Shown here: positions 2,579 to 7,633 of the stretch, piece by piece
How positions within the stretch are numbered: the first letter of the stretch is position 1
Layout of the letters: each line of letters starts with the position of its first letter
Assembly (NCBI GenBank): GCA_017465565.1
Contig: JAFTWA010000034.1
Span: forward strand, 1-64,000
Direction: 5' to 3'
Length of the DNA stretch: 64,000 nt
From: Tyzzerella sp.
GTDB lineage: Bacteria; Bacillota; Clostridia; Lachnospirales; Lachnospiraceae
Made by a program: the position numbers and the translations under genes
The notes under the pieces: generated by a model
Seen by the model: the letters and a program-made list of their open reading frames with translations, nothing else
Told to the model about the DNA's origin: nothing
Databases searched by the model: none

Positions 2579-2607
2579 AAAGGAAGTCTCGTATGGGGAC
2601 TTCCTTT
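2579..2607 (+). terminator. Hairpin between the TPR/ATPase gene and trmB
   Basis: Ten-base perfect arms AAAGGAAGTC and GACTTCCTTT flank a 9-base loop, just after the stop codon. The T tract is short, so it may be a leaky terminator or an RNA-processing site. Confidence 0.6.
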
Positions 2608-2631
2608 CGCATGAAATGAGGCAGAGAAAAT

Positions 2632-3282
2632 ATGAGATTAAGAAATATACCAGGTGCAGACGACGTGATTCAAGCGCATCCGATTGCAATCAAAAATGAA
2701 AAAGAGCAGAGAGGAAAATGGAATACGATTTTCGGAAATGACAATCCAATTCATATAGAGATTGGAATGGGAAAAGGCCAGTTCCTCCTGACACTTGCAA
2801 AGCAGAATCCAGATATCAACTATATTGGAATCGAACGTTATTCAGCGGTGCTTCTGCGGGCGTTAGAAAAGTTTGATACAGAAGAATATTGTGAGCTTAA
2901 AAATATTCGATTTATTTGTATGAATGCGCTTGAACTTTCGGAGGTATTTGCATATGGAGAGGTGAAGAAGATTTATCTAAACTTCTCGGACCCATGGCCA
3001 AAGGCAAGACATGCGCGAAGAAGACTTACATCCACACAATTTTTTGCCCAATATGATAAGGTTCTTGTGGACGCAGGCGTGGTTGAATTCAAGACTGACA
3101 ACCGCCCGCTTTTCGAATTTTCATTAGAGCAGGTGGAAGAGGCAGGCTGGAAACTGCTGGCCCACACATTTGATTTGCATCATGACGAGGAAATGAATGC
3201 AGGAAATGTCATGACAGAGTATGAAGAAAAATTTTCAAGTATGGGAAATCCAATTCATAAATTGATTGCAACCAGGAAATAA
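2632..3282 (+). CDS. trmB: tRNA (guanine-N7-)-methyltransferase
   Basis: TrmB makes m7G46 in tRNA using S-adenosylmethionine. The 216-residue length is normal for the monomeric bacterial family. The SAM-binding strand and glycine-rich loop are visible (IEIGMGKGQF, about residues 43-52), followed by IGIERY. The family signature NFSDPWPKARHARRRL is near residues 117-132. The protein starts MRLRNIPGAD, the usual N terminus of this family in clostridia. It lies 61 bp after the TPR/ATPase gene, separated by a hairpin. The assignment is firm. Confidence 0.96.
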   Translation: MRLRNIPGADDVIQAHPIAIKNEKEQRGKWNTIFGNDNPIHIEIGMGKGQFLLTLAKQNPDINYIGIERYSAVLLRALEKFDTEEYCELKNIRFICMNALELSEVFAYGEVKKIYLNFSDPWPKARHARRRLTSTQFFAQYDKVLVDAGVVEFKTDNRPLFEFSLEQVEEAGWKLLAHTFDLHHDEEMNAGNVMTEYEEKFSSMGNPIHKLIATRK

Positions 3283-3333
3283 TCTTTAAGAGGAGCATAT
3301 TTTAAATAATAAGAAGATAAAGGATGTGTGCAG

Positions 3334-3456
3334 ATGAAGCGCAGACGTAATTTGTTTTATGCTCATAAGGGTTATCGACGTGCCATGAAGAAATTTCGGA
3401 AATCATTTTTTGAGGTGTTTGAAATTCTAAACAAGCCTTGTGGAAAAAAGTGTTGA
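3334..3456 (+). CDS. Possible 40-residue basic peptide
   Basis: A short open frame of 40 codons starts with ATG 14 bases after an AAAGGATG ribosome-binding-like site. The product is rich in Arg, Lys and Phe (begins MKRRRNLFYA) and ends with Cys-Gly-Lys-Lys-Cys. It sits alone in the 350-base gap between trmB and the YitT gene. Nothing about its function is recognised, and it could be a chance frame. The rest of the gap holds an AT-rich stretch and a terminator at 3563-3588. Confidence 0.3.
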   Translation: MKRRRNLFYAHKGYRRAMKKFRKSFFEVFEILNKPCGKKC

Positions 3457-3562
3457 TTTTCAAACTGTAAAGTGTTAAATTATATTTAACAGATAATTGA
3501 AAAGGAACCGATTGATATGTTTTGGAAAAATCATGTGATGTTTCAAAATGAAGATAGAATTT

Positions 3563-3588
3563 AAGCAAGTCGTTTGACTTGCTTTTTT
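3563..3588 (+). terminator. Rho-independent terminator
   Basis: Arms AAGCAAGTC and GACTTGCTT with loop GTTT are followed by a run of T. It ends the trmB region transcript. Confidence 0.85.
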
Positions 3589-3634
3589 AATGCTCTTTAG
3601 TGTGGTAAATCGGTAGCAAGAGAAAGGTGATTCG

Positions 3635-4534
3635 ATGAAAGCGAAGTATAAGGAAGAACTAAAAAATATTTTTAATCCTAAGAAACTTTTCATGGTAATC
3701 TTGGGGAATACCATTTATAGCTTAGGAGTTGTAGCGTTTATTTTGCCCTTGGGCCTGATTACGGGAGGAACAACGGGACTCGGCTTGATTGCCAATCACT
3801 ATTTTAATATTCCAATTGAAGTGTTTGCAGCAATATTTAATGTGCTGATGTTTGTAATAGCCTGGTTCACACTCGGCACCTCTTTTGCATTTACAACTAT
3901 GATAAGTACATTCTATTATCCAACTATTCTGGCTGTGCTTCAGAAAGTGGAGGCGCTAAAAACACTTACAACAGATTTAATGCTTGCAACAATCTGTGCA
4001 GGGCTACTGATTGGGTTTGGTATTGGAATTGTTATTCGTGCAGGTGCTTCTACAGGGGGTGTGGATATTCCACCACTTGTTTTAAATAAGAAACTTGGAA
4101 TTCCGATTTCGGTCGGTCTATATGCATGTGATTTTGCGATTTTGATTGGACAGATGTTTTTCCGTGACCACGAAAGAACGCTATATGGAATTTTACTGGT
4201 TCTTGTTTATACAGTTGTAATGGACAAGGTACTGTTAAGTGGTAAGAGCAAGGTCGAAGTGAAAATTATTAGTAAATATCATGAACAAATTAATAAGGCA
4301 ATTCAAGAGAAAGTGGATCGAGGCACTACCTTCTTAAAAATTGAAACAGGATATCTTCGAGAAGATACAAAAGCGCTTATGACCGTGGTTTCCAATCGTG
4401 AGCTGCCGAAACTCAATCAAATTGTAATGGATATTGATCCCAAGGCATTCATGGTGATTAATGAAGCGAAGGAAGTAATGGGGCAAGGATTTACAACACA
4501 TAAGAATCATGTTGCTCCAAATGAAAAAAAATAA
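3635..4534 (+). CDS. YitT family membrane protein with C-terminal DUF2179 domain
   Basis: This is a 299-residue integral membrane protein. About five or six hydrophobic segments fill residues 15-200, including a glycine/threonine-rich LITGGTTGLGLI stretch. A soluble C-terminal domain of about 80 residues follows (KVEVKIISKYHEQINKAIQE onward), as in YitT/DUF2179 proteins. The family is common in Firmicutes and its substrate is not established. AAAGG precedes the ATG with normal spacing. It is monocistronic, between a terminator upstream and the tRNA-Lys promoter downstream. Confidence 0.9.
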   Translation: MKAKYKEELKNIFNPKKLFMVILGNTIYSLGVVAFILPLGLITGGTTGLGLIANHYFNIPIEVFAAIFNVLMFVIAWFTLGTSFAFTTMISTFYYPTILAVLQKVEALKTLTTDLMLATICAGLLIGFGIGIVIRAGASTGGVDIPPLVLNKKLGIPISVGLYACDFAILIGQMFFRDHERTLYGILLVLVYTVVMDKVLLSGKSKVEVKIISKYHEQINKAIQEKVDRGTTFLKIETGYLREDTKALMTVVSNRELPKLNQIVMDIDPKAFMVINEAKEVMGQGFTTHKNHVAPNEKK

Positions 4535-4594: not shown

Positions 4595-4667
4595 GCGCGA
4601 TTAGCTCAGTTGGTAGAGCACCTGACTCTTAATCAGGGTGTCCAGGGTTCGAGCCCCTGATCGCGCA
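4595..4667 (+). tRNA. tRNA-Lys (anticodon CTT)
   Basis: A 73-base cloverleaf is visible. The acceptor arms are GCGCGAT (4595-4601) and ATCGCGC (4660-4666). The D arm contains TAGCTCAGTTGGTAGAGCA. The anticodon stem CCTGA/TCAGG encloses the loop CTCTTAA with anticodon CTT, and the T arm holds GGTTCGA. CCA is not encoded. The last 43 bases are repeated exactly at 7591-7633, so this tRNA gene is the integration site of the adjoining element, and the gene is left intact. Confidence 0.97.
4625..4667 (+). repeat. attL (3' part of tRNA-Lys)
   Basis: These 43 bases run from the anticodon loop to the tRNA 3' end and match attR at 7591-7633 without a mismatch. This is the usual geometry for tyrosine-recombinase integration into a tRNA gene. 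Confidence 0.93.
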
Positions 4668-4669
4668 CT

Positions 4670-4703
4670 AGCCTTGAAATCATTGGATTTTAGGGCTTTT
4701 TTT
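4670..4703 (+). terminator. Terminator just inside the element, serving tRNA-Lys
   Basis: Arms AGCCTTGAAATC and GATTTTAGGGCT (paired with G-U wobbles) enclose ATTG and are followed by seven T. It is element DNA, yet it closely resembles the chromosomal terminator displaced to 7636-7670, so the interrupted tRNA keeps a terminator. Confidence 0.8.
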
Positions 4704-4730
4704 ATGCCCATTTTATGACTACTTTTTTCG

Positions 4731-5621
4731 TCAAGAAATGAGCACTTTATCTAGGTGTGATATTGATGTTTTTGTCGCTATAATTTGCTGTGCAAAGTGT
4801 AAATAGCGTTGCGTTGTTTCTACGTCCTCATGCCCCATGAGAAGCATAAGAGCGTATATGTCAACCTTGCCATGTTGTTCATATTGATTGATACAGTAGT
4901 TAGTAGCAAAGTTGTGACGTAGTTTGTGTGATGAAAACGGAAATGGTAATTGTATAGCAATCTTGCGCATGAAGAGTTTCACTGCATTAGTTGTTAGAGA
5001 ATCCCCATGACGTGCAACAAGGAAATACTCTGATTGATACGGACACAAATTATTATACAGTGTCATATAGTGTTTTGTAATTTTGCCGAATGGTACAACT
5101 CGTTCTTTGTTACCTTTTCCACATATCTTCATAGTGCATGATTGAAAATTAATCTCTGCACGAAGTAGGGTGCAAACCTCGTTTTGTCTTAGTCCTGAAT
5201 CGAGCATCAGAGCAATTATGCAACAATTTCGAACACGTAGCCATTCTTCCTCGGCATGTACCATGTTGAATATCTGCACAATTTCATCATCCGTGTATAT
5301 ATGCAACACTTTCTTTGGTGTTTTTGGTACTTTGATTTTATCAGCCTGAACACAAATCTCATATTCTTCCTCAATCCATTTCAGAAAGATTTTGATATGT
5401 CGAATGTATGTTGATACCGTAGCACGCGATAACGTACGTTTTAGGAGCGTATTTATATAACCATTGACCAAGTCACGATTCAGAGCAGAAATATTCAAAT
5501 CTGAGCCAATATGAGCCACAAACGGCTTAATAAACGACACATAGCAATCGATAGACTTTTCAGCCAATCCCTGAATCTGTCGAGAGAATATGAAGTTGTC
5601 AAAAGCAAGTTGTAGCGTCAT
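4731..5621 (-). CDS. Tyrosine recombinase (integrase)
   Basis: This 296-residue phage-type integrase should recombine the attL/attR sites in tRNA-Lys. It has an N-terminal SAM-like core-binding domain (about 1-95) and a catalytic domain. The catalytic set is complete: Arg145 in SGLRQNE, a Lys in the KGNKERVVPF hairpin, His232-x-x-Arg235 in SHKLRHNFAT, His264 in LMGHED, and Tyr273 in QRYLHF. The start has a GAAAGGA ribosome site, and the gene lies 12 bp after rep, so the two are probably one transcript. It lies next to attL and reads toward the tRNA. Closest in shape to XerC/XerD-like and small-element integrases. Confidence 0.93.
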   Translation of the reverse strand: MTLQLAFDNFIFSRQIQGLAEKSIDCYVSFIKPFVAHIGSDLNISALNRDLVNGYINTLLKRTLSRATVSTYIRHIKIFLKWIEEEYEICVQADKIKVPKTPKKVLHIYTDDEIVQIFNMVHAEEEWLRVRNCCIIALMLDSGLRQNEVCTLLRAEINFQSCTMKICGKGNKERVVPFGKITKHYMTLYNNLCPYQSEYFLVARHGDSLTTNAVKLFMRKIAIQLPFPFSSHKLRHNFATNYCINQYEQHGKVDIYALMLLMGHEDVETTQRYLHFAQQIIATKTSISHLDKVLIS

Positions 5622-5633
5622 ATCTTATCCTTT

Positions 5634-6395
5634 CTAGAGCAATTTCAAATACTCTGTGTAATCGTCTTTATCTAAATCAAAGGTCTTTATTTTGCAATAG
5701 CCTTCAGGGTGTTCATAATCCCAATCACAAAGCAGTTCGGCACGACCTCGATATAATTCTTCAGCACTTTGCAAGCCTTTAGATGCATAGTATAAATGGC
5801 ATCCTAACTCTTTCACATTCTTATCCATTTCTTTCGTGATGTACTTTGTGATGTAACTAGAAACACGGTCTTTATCTTTCACAACACCAAGACTAATATA
5901 TCCAAATCGTTGCTCATAGGCTTTCCAACCTAGATACCCATTATCGTTTATGTACAAATCAGATTCAGTCAGACCTTGAAACAATCCGTGCATATGCCAT
6001 GCTCCGTCTTTGTGTAGTTCAGGAATGAGTATATATTTGACCTTTTTATCAGCATCACGTCTACGGTTGAAGTTGTGTAGAAATTCCGATAAATCACGAT
6101 AATACACTTTCAAATCATAGCGATTATATTTTTCCTGATTGATAGTCAATGTGACGAAATAACTCCATGGATTGCATAAAGCAAGTTCATTTATGCGAGT
6201 TTTAGCACGTACGATATTGTTAGACAATTTCTCGGTATTTACAGTATTCTTTTTTGAATATTCAATCAGTTTGTCCTCTTCCAAACCTGATACACGACAA
6301 GCCGAGAGATTCACGACTTTTAATCTAGAATCACCGAGTTGTTTAACAATTGTTATATCTTCTTGGTAGAGAAAATGTTGTCCTAGGCTACCCAT
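5634..6395 (-). CDS. rep: HUH-endonuclease replication initiation protein (microvirus Rep-like)
   Basis: This 253-residue protein should nick a double-strand origin and start rolling-circle replication. Three Rep motifs are visible in order. Motif I is FVTLT at about 80-84. The HUH motif is WHMHG at 133-137 (His134, His136). The tyrosine motif YITKYITKEM follows, with Tyr181, Lys184 and Tyr185. The last pattern is typical of Microviridae and related small-phage or plasmid Reps, rather than of conjugative relaxases. A GAGGTG site precedes the ATG. Just downstream on the same strand is int. No capsid gene accompanies it, so a plasmid-like or satellite identity fits better than a complete phage. 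Confidence 0.88.
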   Translation of the reverse strand: MGSLGQHFLYQEDITIVKQLGDSRLKVVNLSACRVSGLEEDKLIEYSKKNTVNTEKLSNNIVRAKTRINELALCNPWSYFVTLTINQEKYNRYDLKVYYRDLSEFLHNFNRRRDADKKVKYILIPELHKDGAWHMHGLFQGLTESDLYINDNGYLGWKAYEQRFGYISLGVVKDKDRVSSYITKYITKEMDKNVKELGCHLYYASKGLQSAEELYRGRAELLCDWDYEHPEGYCKIKTFDLDKDDYTEYLKLL

Positions 6396-6699
6396 TCAAT
6401 GCACCTCATAATCTACAAGTTAGCAAGTTTGTCCCGAAAAATGATACTATGTCAAGTATAGGAGAACCTCTAGTCTATTGAGTGTGAGAAGTGCTCTCCC
6501 CAGTGGGGAGAGCCACTATCCCCACCACACACCAACTACACACCAGCATATCGAAACCACCATGTTACATGGGTAATCAAAGCACGCGTCATTATTTGTT
6601 GGCTAATCTAGTCTTTCTTCGCGCAGCTTAATTTGTTGGCTACATTAGTCGGTGTATTAGTAGTCATGCTCGCCCAAAGGGCACCCGAGCATAAGCAAG
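6396..6699. other. Intergenic region with candidate replication origin
   Basis: No gene is seen in these 304 bases. They hold a 9-bp perfect inverted repeat, GCTCTCCCC/GGGGAGAGC (6493-6501 and 6505-6513, loop AGT), in a C-rich surround. They also hold two 12-bp direct repeats ATTTGTTGGCTA at 6594-6605 and 6631-6642, each followed by a similar TAGTC sequence. A Rep-binding or nicking role is inferred from the position directly upstream of rep; the hairpin could instead end the leftward 77-aa gene transcript. Confidence 0.5.
6493..6513 (-). repeat. Strong GC-rich inverted repeat upstream of rep
   Basis: Perfect 9-bp arms with a 3-base loop, in an otherwise AT-rich element. It has no T tract on the plus strand. 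Either a double-strand-origin hairpin or a terminator is possible. Confidence 0.6.
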
Positions 6700-6933
6700 T
6701 TATTTGTTGCTAAAAAGCGTAGCATAACGGCTTACAATTTCATCACATAAAGCATCTTCAAACCATTCGAGGAACTCTGCAAAAAAGAATGCACAATCAT
6801 AATCACCGAGTGATTCCTTAAGTTTCCTAAAAGTCTGATATTGCAATGCAAGTTCTTGATATTCCATATTTTGCAAATACTGTTTGAATCGTTCGCCATG
6901 GATTTGTACCCATGAAATATTAGTTGTTACCAT
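6700..6933 (-). CDS. 77-residue element protein of unknown function
   Basis: A longer frame begins at 7080, but the ATG at 6933 has a good AAAGGAGTG ribosome site 6-7 bases upstream. The upstream extension looks like translated regulatory DNA, so 6933 is chosen. The product (MVTTNISWVQIHGERFKQYL at its start) is helical, aromatic-rich and acidic at its C terminus, with no known motif, signal or membrane segment. It is the first gene of the leftward set and divergent from the HTH regulator. It could be a replication accessory or control protein; this is a guess from position only. Confidence 0.6.
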   Translation of the reverse strand: MVTTNISWVQIHGERFKQYLQNMEYQELALQYQTFRKLKESLGDYDCAFFFAEFLEWFEDALCDEIVSRYATLFSNK

Positions 6934-6950
6934 AAAATCACTCCTTTTGT

Positions 6951-6973
6951 TTGTTCTATTGATTGTAGAACAA
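6951..6973. promoter_or_regulatory. Palindrome between the divergent element genes
   Basis: Arms TTGTTCTA and TAGAACAA are perfect reverse complements around TTGATTG. The palindrome lies about 18 bp upstream of the leftward 77-aa gene, a natural operator position for the element's HTH regulator. Confidence 0.45.
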
Positions 6974-7122
6974 TTGTTGAATTTGTTGTTGCAATATGTC
7001 ACGAAAACGTATATAATTGAATATGTCAAATATGGTTGGCGTTCGCATACCATATCGCAGATATAGTATAACATTGTCAATTAGGTGTGTCAACACCAAC
7101 TTGATTGGAAAGGTAGGATTTT

Positions 7123-7524
7123 ATGCTGAATTATACAAAATTATGGTTATTACTTGAAAGCAGAGGAATGAAACGCACAGATTTAAAACAAATCATGTCT
7201 GCCAATACTTTAGCGAAACTAGGCAAAAATGAAATTGTGTCAAGTGCAGTCATTGAGAAAATATGTGGTTTTCTGAATTGTCAGCCAGGAGATATAATGG
7301 AGTACATCAGCGAAGAGCAAATGAGAACGACGGCGGAACAATTAGACAATCTAAATAAAGTCCTTATGCAACAATTACAAGCACAAGGCATTACAGAAGA
7401 ACAGTTCGCAACTATGATGTCACAACTGATGCCAGAAATGGTCAAAAATATCTATCATGGCGAAAAAACTATGGCAGAGATATATGACAAAGTCATTGAG
7501 GATAATTTGCCTAAATCAGAGTAA
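7123..7524 (+). CDS. HTH (Cro/CI-type) regulator of the integrated element
   Basis: This 133-residue protein has an N-terminal compact helix-turn-helix of the short Cro/CI type found in YozG-like regulators. Visible pieces are LESRGMKRTDLKQIMSANTL, then TLAKLGKNEIVSSAVIEKIC and FLNCQPGDIMEYI. The C-terminal half is a helical, Gln/Met-rich tail, possibly a dimerisation segment. It is transcribed away from the other element genes and is followed by its own terminator. It probably keeps the leftward genes quiet in the integrated state; this is inference from gene order. AAAGG precedes the ATG. Confidence 0.85.
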   Translation: MLNYTKLWLLLESRGMKRTDLKQIMSANTLAKLGKNEIVSSAVIEKICGFLNCQPGDIMEYISEEQMRTTAEQLDNLNKVLMQQLQAQGITEEQFATMMSQLMPEMVKNIYHGEKTMAEIYDKVIEDNLPKSE

Positions 7525-7530
7525 AAAAAT

Positions 7531-7567
7531 AGTACCTAAAAGCATATAGCCGATAGGTACTTTTTTT
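7531..7567 (+). terminator. Terminator after the element HTH gene
   Basis: Arms AGTACCTA and TAGGTACT flank a 15-base loop and are followed by seven T. Confidence 0.8.
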
Positions 7568-7590
7568 GTTGTTCCTCATAATGCGTTTTA

Positions 7591-7633
7591 ACTCTTAATC
7601 AGGGTGTCCAGGGTTCGAGCCCCTGATCGCGCA
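7591..7633 (+). repeat. attR (duplicate of the tRNA-Lys 3' part)
   Basis: An exact 43-base copy of 4625-4667. It contains no 5' tRNA half, so it is not a functional tRNA gene. Confidence 0.93.

What the first reader, a model, noticed from the sequence alone, without database searches (positions are those of the whole stretch)
4625..7633. A 2,966-bp integrated element made of tyrosine recombinase plus microvirus-type HUH Rep
Exact 43-bp att repeats in tRNA-Lys bound only four genes: int, rep, a 77-aa protein and an HTH regulator. The Rep has FVTLT, HMH and YITKYITK motifs like Microviridae replication proteins, but no capsid gene is present. Known integrated microviruses carry capsid genes and usually rely on host Xer recombinases. 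A unit this small with its own integrase looks like a satellite or a minimal rolling-circle integrative element. Known: HUH Reps and tRNA integration. Inferred: excision, circular replication and dependence on a helper phage or plasmid.
Basis: partly seen in the sequence, partly recalled or inferred. Interest (0 to 1): 0.85.

Follow-up and report, generated by a model that had tools for sequence, protein, structure and literature searches.

The report
Tiny integrating replicon with filamentous-phage parts
A 3-kilobase DNA element sits inside a lysine tRNA gene of a Clostridia bacterium and carries an integrase, a rolling-circle replication protein and two small genes; it belongs to a recurring coat-less group whose replication and integration proteins resemble those of filamentous phages rather than microviruses.

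Summary
In detail: an exact 43-bp repeat (4625-4667, 7591-7633) in tRNA-Lys bounds a 2,966-bp unit with int, rep, a 77-aa gene and an HTH gene. A same-genus genome has the tRNA without the element. 'Microvirus-type' is not supported: the best phage matches of Rep are annotated inoviruses (E 6e-36); microvirus matches are weak (best listed 2e-4). I found nine such int-rep units of 2.6-4.5 kb; in seven an intact tRNA-Lys carries the exact repeat; none has the inovirus assembly ATPase pI. Eight of nine integrases form one clade (100/100) beside inovirus-type integrases. A site before rep, core TACTTGAC, occurs in 8 of 9 elements, 22 of 36 pI-bearing loci, 3 of 4 small plasmids and 0 of 3 microviruses; shuffles 0.4%. 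I read it as the origin. Best explanation: a self-integrating rolling-circle replicon built from the kinds of Rep and Int that Clostridia inoviruses carry. No inovirus was found with both the same Rep clade and the same Int clade. Whether an inovirus packages it is open: no pI in the own draft genome or in 6 of 8 other hosts. Excision and replication are inferred.

The parts
4595..4668 (+). tRNA-Lys(CTT); its 3' part 4625-4667 is one att copy
   Evidence: ARAGORN; repeat
7591..7633 (+). second att copy, exact 43-bp repeat of the tRNA-Lys 3' part
4731..5621 (-). int: tyrosine recombinase, 296 aa
   Evidence: PF00589 5.9e-27; R145, K169, H232, R235, H264, Y273 invariant in 8 Ints, window included (their catalytic role is recalled)
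5634..6395 (-). rep: HUH rolling-circle initiator with two tyrosines (Y181-xx-K-Y185), 253 aa, 12 nt before int on the same strand
   Evidence: PF23343 8.8e-14, phrog_3419 3.8e-16, invariant motifs, spacing
6441..6458 (-). TACTTGACATAGTATCAT, predicted double-strand origin / nick site
6493..6513 (.). G+C-rich hairpin with 9-bp arms, upstream of the predicted origin
   Evidence: no comparable hairpin in L073 or L074
6585..6650 (.). imperfect 29-nt direct repeat (76%), possible iterons
   Evidence: weak
6700..6933 (-). 77-aa protein of unknown function, upstream of rep
   Evidence: no hit in Pfam, PHROGs or NCBIfam; no homologue at E<=5 among small ORFs of the loci searched
6951..6973 (.). inverted repeat TTGTTCTA-7-TAGAACAA between the divergent genes, possible operator
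   Evidence: function inferred
7065..7093 (-). promoter-like TTGACA-17-TATACT (11 of 12) facing the 77-aa/rep/int genes
   Evidence: the number of promoter-like sites (13) is no more than in shuffles (12.3)
7123..7524 (+). HTH_26 (Cro/C1-type) regulator, 133 aa, divergent from rep-int
   Evidence: PF13443 3e-13

Best explanation
A site-specific integrative rolling-circle replicon with no recognised virion genes. Shown from sequence: the unit is bounded by exact att repeats in tRNA-Lys; a same-genus genome has the tRNA without it; the gene pair rep-int in this order, in tRNA-Lys, recurs in a coat-less group across genera; its Rep and its Int each have their nearest viral relatives in inoviruses. 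Inferred: the HTH protein represses the 77-aa/rep/int genes; when repression lifts, Int recombines the two att copies to release a 2,966-bp circle; Rep nicks at TACTTG^ACATA (position by recalled analogy with phiX174 and pC194) and drives rolling-circle replication; the circle reintegrates into tRNA-Lys and restores the tRNA. How it reaches new cells is not known.
For: att repeats and gene set. In G554 tRNA-Lys is followed directly by the right-flank gene; the window flanks joined without the element align through the junction (1,516 columns, 71.5%; about 134 nt lie left of the junction, the rest right). Nine int-rep elements: 8 of the 49 loci of the genome-contig scan plus the window; 4 of 200 same-family genomes, own included. 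Exact repeats of 43-98 bp (332 in L079) at distances 2,607-4,462 in eight of nine. No pI hit at E<=1e-5 in the nine. Int clade of eight 100/100. Element G+C below its flanks in 8 of 8 measured. Origin core in 8 of 9 elements, sense strand only, shuffles 0.4%; the exact 18-mer occurs in 3 of 397 family genomes, own included, all three inside these elements, reversed-pattern control 0, and in 1 of 391 class genomes, the own. One Rep match in the own genome.
Against: No read data, so excision, circle and replication are unobserved. Most relatives are MAG contigs. L074 (3,211-bp contig, 18-bp identical ends, one att) fits a circle, but its MAG shows no other copy of that att, so an assembly break is possible. 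In G554 only about 134 nt left of the junction match, so the left gene there is different. The stem around the origin core is weak in most elements. L087 has an element Int but a Rep of another clade and no TACTTGAC core. No pI-bearing locus was found that joins an element-clade Rep to an element-clade Int: L061, L062 and L066 have close Ints but Reps of another clade, L064, L065, L067 and L068 gave no hit to the HUH Rep model, Dulem virus 51 has a Rep_trans Rep, and the pI loci nearest in Rep gave no Int of this type in the stretch held.
Confidence: 0.8

Rival explanations
1. Inovirus satellite: the circle is packaged as ssDNA by a helper filamentous phage, as RS1 is by CTXphi. Compatible with the best explanation; it adds the transfer route.
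For: Rep and origin core shared with inoviruses; one pI-bearing contig (L083) has the exact 18-mer before its rep; inoviruses with rep directly followed by a related int exist (L061, L062, L066; circular Dulem virus 51); L065, a pI-bearing contig, ends in sequence that I read as tRNA-Lys (ARAGORN called none), and its Int groups with that of element L079 (92/95); no transfer gene of another kind was recognised.
Against: No pI in the own genome or in six of the eight other element hosts; G559 has one clear and two weak hits, G558 one weak hit. The G559 inovirus, cut by the contig end, shows no Rep of this family and no TACTTGAC in the 9.4 kb read. No packaging signal was identified. No inovirus with both the same Rep clade and Int clade was found.
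Confidence: 0.32
2. Autonomous integrative plasmid with no phage helper, spread by transformation, vesicles or passive mobilisation.
For: Reps of 1.4-1.5-kb staphylococcal plasmids are relatives (28.6-35.2% in the rows seen) and in three plasmids examined the origin core sits in a strong hairpin loop; integrated HUH-Rep plasmids without virion genes are known (PMC6668415, passages and one section).
Against: No relaxase or other transfer gene was recognised in the four proteins; presence across genera needs some vehicle.
Confidence: 0.4
3. Decayed inovirus prophage that lost its morphogenesis genes.
For: Rep and Int resemble those of inoviruses.
Against: Rep and Int frames are open in all nine; eight Ints form one clade with no pI in any member; the repeats are exact. 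Loss may lie at the root of the lineage. One clade of all nine Ints is rejected (AU p 0.0016; the test was chosen after the quick tree had shown the split), so coat-less forms probably arose at least twice.
Confidence: 0.08
4. Microvirus-derived element.
For: Shared HUH superfamily and YxxKY motif; Microviridae appear among weak hits. The tree does not reject the microvirus branch joining next to the window Rep (AU p 0.318).
Against: E-values of 2e-4 or worse among the listed rows against 6e-36 for inoviruses; 0 of 3 microviruses have the origin core.
Confidence: 0.03

Closest known systems
Integrase-bearing inoviruses of Clostridia type (IMG/VR L061, L062, L066; Dulem virus 51, PP511381)
   Same: rep directly followed by a same-type tyrosine integrase (31.5-35% to the window Int); L061 has 29-bp end repeats that read like a tRNA part (my reading; ARAGORN called none)
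   Different: They carry pI and other genes and are about 5-8 kb (L066 is a partial contig); their Reps are of another HUH clade, or Rep_trans in Dulem virus 51
Gut inoviruses with a related Rep (bajarodino virus 5; Dulem viruses 69 and 74; L026, L057, L082)
   Same: Nearest viral Reps; TACTTGAC core before rep in L026, L057, L082 and L123
   Different: Carry pI; no integrase of this type found in the stretch held
RS1 satellite of CTXphi
   Same: About 2.7 kb, HUH Rep, divergent repressor, no virion genes (anatomy recalled); satellite status stated in PMC11389934 (passage)
   Different: RS1 uses host XerCD (recalled); this has its own integrase and a tRNA-Lys site; no helper is known here
pCRESS and other integrated HUH-Rep plasmids (PMC6668415)
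   Same: Site-specifically integrated, att repeats, Rep, no viral structural genes (passages and section 7)
   Different: pCRESS Reps have nuclease plus helicase domains; in this 253-aa Rep only the HUH nuclease domain is recognised
1.4-1.5-kb cryptic staphylococcal RCR plasmids (pAvY-B2, pSALNC1.4-1)
   Same: Related Rep and TACTTGACATA origin core
   Different: Extrachromosomal, one annotated gene, no integrase
Autonomous plasmid as an inovirus satellite (Schmid et al. 2024; title seen only in a reference list; not held)
   Same: By its title, a precedent for a plasmid moved by an inovirus
   Different: Not read; no comparison made

Membership tests
Inoviridae | Morphogenesis ATPase pI | tested here: not met
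   0 of 9 elements hit at E<=1e-5 by a 15-row pI model; no such family in the 4 window proteins
Inoviridae | Rolling-circle Rep of a type found in inoviruses | tested here: met
Microviridae | Major capsid protein | tested here: not met
   no capsid family at E<=0.001 among the four proteins
Phage satellite (RS1-like) | Resident or co-occurring helper | tested here: inconclusive
   pI at E<=1e-3 in 2 of 9 element hosts (G559 clear, G558 weak), none in the own draft genome
Phage satellite (RS1-like) | Packaging dependent on a helper | not testable with these tools
   needs phage preparations
Integrated HUH-Rep plasmid | Rep plus att repeats, no virion genes | tested here: met
pCRESS group | Rep with HUH nuclease and superfamily 3 helicase | tested here: not met
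   only an HUH-type domain passes its cut-off in the 253 aa
Integrative mobilizable or conjugative element | Relaxase or type IV secretion genes | tested here: not met
   none among the four proteins; Rep itself acting as a relaxase was not tested

The most novel reading that the evidence does not exclude
A long-lived lineage of tRNA-Lys-integrating satellites of filamentous phages in Gram-positive Clostridia, each with its own tyrosine integrase: an RS1-like way of life that arose at least twice from inovirus-type parts and shares an origin with some inoviruses, so that a helper's Rep or packaging machine can act on it.
Probability: 0.27. Interest if true: 0.8.

Novelty: new variant of a known kind. 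Interest (0 to 1): 0.62.

Why it matters
It shows a very small self-integrating replicon (2.6-3.7 kb in eight of the nine) and links coat-less plasmids with filamentous phages through related Rep and Int proteins and a shared predicted origin. It gives a concrete system for asking whether ssDNA phages of Gram-positive gut bacteria have satellites, and which way genes moved between plasmids and inoviruses. A search that starts from pI, as in the large inovirus survey (PMC6813254, passages), would not pick it up.

Tried and rejected
Microvirus origin: disfavoured on similarity and origin, though the tree alone does not exclude it. Resident helper in the own genome: none with PF05707 or the pI alignment. 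Shared origin between element L079 and the inovirus in the same genome: not found. Viral contigs: the single Rep gave nothing; the Rep alignment gave 4 loci; two Int alignments gave the same 12, none in the eight-Int clade; the exact 18-mer hit three contigs, in ORFs with no Rep, Int or pI hit, counted as chance. L074 as proof of a circle: its att occurs once in its MAG, inside the contig itself, so the test did not decide. A partner for the 77-aa protein: none; small proteins of L016 and L087 match each other weakly (E 0.005). Solved structures: only weak matches of Rep to Replication-associated proteins (best E 0.0069). All nine Ints as one clade: rejected. Eight Reps as one clade: neither rejected nor shown (p 0.296).

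Rows dropped before counts: loci that duplicate others (for example L075, L076, L078) and loci fetched for other ends; then 7 loci and 3 ORFs from the Rep set and 12 further distant loci from the first Rep tree. The careful Rep tree used 41 chosen rows. The careful Int tree used 21 of 42 rows; among those left out is L027, pI-bearing with a long branch (2.21), which had joined the eight element Ints in the quick tree (support 90).

Literature: ten searches. By titles and abstract starts in the listings, none is on this lineage; the library holds only open-licence papers, so this is no proof that it is unpublished. Read as passages only: PMC6813254, PMC11389934; passages and section 7: PMC6668415.
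Full report
What is there. The repeat is exact over 43 bp and lies in tRNA-Lys(CTT); the spacing is 2,966 bp. Between the copies are int and rep on the minus strand, 12 nt apart, then a 77-aa ORF, and a divergent HTH gene. The gene to the left is a 299-aa ORF; the gene to the right, a 395-aa ORF, I take for deoB (recalled). In the genus sample the right flank matches 8 of the 9 other genomes, two of them only over 120-146 bp. In G554 tRNA-Lys is followed after about 76 nt by this gene; the window flanks joined without the element align to it in one piece of 1,516 columns at 71.5%, about 134 nt of it left of the junction. G551 also has tRNA-Lys without the element, with both flank genes but rearranged.

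Not a single case. The window Rep matches 13 of 200 same-family genomes, own included, and 13 of 392 in the order sample (the samples overlap). Four of the 200 (G000, G098, G181, G117) have an Int of this kind beside rep and att repeats. A scan of GTDB species genomes gave 49 Rep loci; eight are int-rep units of this kind, three of them with the contig lengths and repeats of G098, G181 and G117. With the window there are nine: window 2,966 bp; L073 2,607; L014 3,093; L015 2,933; L016 3,488; L077 2,870; L079 4,462; L087 3,667; and L074, a 3,211-bp contig. In seven an intact tRNA-Lys is called at the exact repeat; in L015 the repeat reads as the tRNA 3' part but the contig stops; L074 has one att and 18-bp identical ends. 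The repeat of L079 is long (332 bp), with further matching stretches beside it that lie in the int gene, so a tandem remnant is likely.

Relatives. tblastn in phage records: 46 records at E<=0.01, best an annotated inovirus (33.9%, 6e-36), microviruses from 2e-4 (40 of 46 rows seen; taxonomy read for the seven records). In plasmids: 42 records, 28 of them Staphylococcus, many 1.4-1.5 kb (40 of 42 rows seen). In the 71-row tree, 8 of 9 element Reps lie in a set of 15 rows with 5 pI-bearing loci (SH-aLRT 97); the three microvirus Reps stand apart on long branches. In the careful 41-row tree the window groups with L073, L074, L014 and L015 (92/95); deeper order is weak, and joining the window to the microviruses is not rejected (p 0.318). 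For Int, eight elements form a clade of 100/100 among inovirus-type Ints; L079's Int pairs with that of L065 (92/95), and one clade of all nine is rejected (p 0.0016, test chosen). The group called INO includes three rows (L063, L028, L029) with no pI hit in the stretch held, and L027, which had joined the eight, was left out. The pairing matters: loci with pI and a close Int have a Rep of another HUH clade (L061, L062, L066), no hit to the HUH Rep model (L064, L065, L067, L068) or a Rep_trans Rep (Dulem virus 51); loci with pI and a close Rep showed no Int of this type. The order rep-then-int is shared, the exact pair is not.

Origin. A search of stretches upstream of rep for shared words turned up TACTTGACATAGTATCAT. 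It is exact in five elements and in pI-bearing L083; 1 mismatch in L017 and L081 (the latter on the other strand), 2 in L057, 3 in L016 and L077, 4 in L079 and several others; shuffles reach 3-5 mismatches, so the 4-mismatch cases do not count alone. The core TACTTGAC in the 300 nt before the Rep domain, sense strand: elements 8 of 9, pI loci 22 of 36, other loci 5 of 31, plasmids 3 of 4, microviruses 0 of 3 (one plasmid and one microvirus had under 100 nt there); antisense 1 in all; shuffled rate 0.0039. The motif was found in the element sequences, so their count is no independent test; the pI loci, the plasmids and the genome scans come closer to one. In 9 of 38 cases the core lies in a hairpin loop better than flank shuffles (p<=0.05): three plasmids, L020, L077 and four pI loci; the window's own stem is weak (4 bp, p 0.14). 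A hairpin with 9-bp arms lies upstream (6493-6513).

Helper. The pI alignment model found no match in the own genome nor in G098, G181, G117, G556, G557 and G560; G559 had one clear pI and two weak hits, G558 one weak hit; two genomes whose pI is in the model served as positive controls. Most of these are drafts or MAGs.

Judgement. The unit is a real, recurrent, coat-less integrative replicon by its anatomy. Its kinship with filamentous phages is supported for Int by the tree and for Rep by similarity and origin; the direction of descent is not established. Whether it is a satellite is the open and interesting question.

Noticed in passing
L085:5572-7580; L097:4765-8964; L102:7739-7766; L107:7664-7691; L084:5549-5576: Five of 17 Rep-bearing loci scanned have a perfect 11-6-11 palindrome (for example ATTATACAAAA-TTGATA-TTTTGTATAAT); in L085, L107, L102 and L084 it lies within about 130 nt of a Xer-type recombinase gene. 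In L085 two 37-bp repeats bound 1,957 bp in which rep is the only gene that my three models recognise; in L097 the repeats are 4,129 bp apart. This looks like use of a dif-like site.
   Followed up: partly
L017:3531-9569: A 6.0-kb unit between 28-bp repeats at tRNA-Met with a related Rep, a HerA/FtsK-like ATPase (PF01935 4.2e-6) and a 437-aa integrase.
   Followed up: partly
L079:3628-4953: The element of Yanshouia hominis carries a NERD-domain protein (PF08378 1.6e-23) as apparent cargo.
   Followed up: no
L020:493-4672: A rep-bearing unit of about 4.2 kb between 22-bp repeats at tRNA-Leu, with TACTTGACAT in the loop of an 8-bp hairpin; a second, short Rep-like ORF lies outside it at 175-522.
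   Followed up: partly
L014:2664-2918 and L015:5711-5956: Two elements have related 84- and 81-aa proteins and no hit to the HTH model; the one tested (L014) has no Pfam match at E<=0.01.
   Followed up: no
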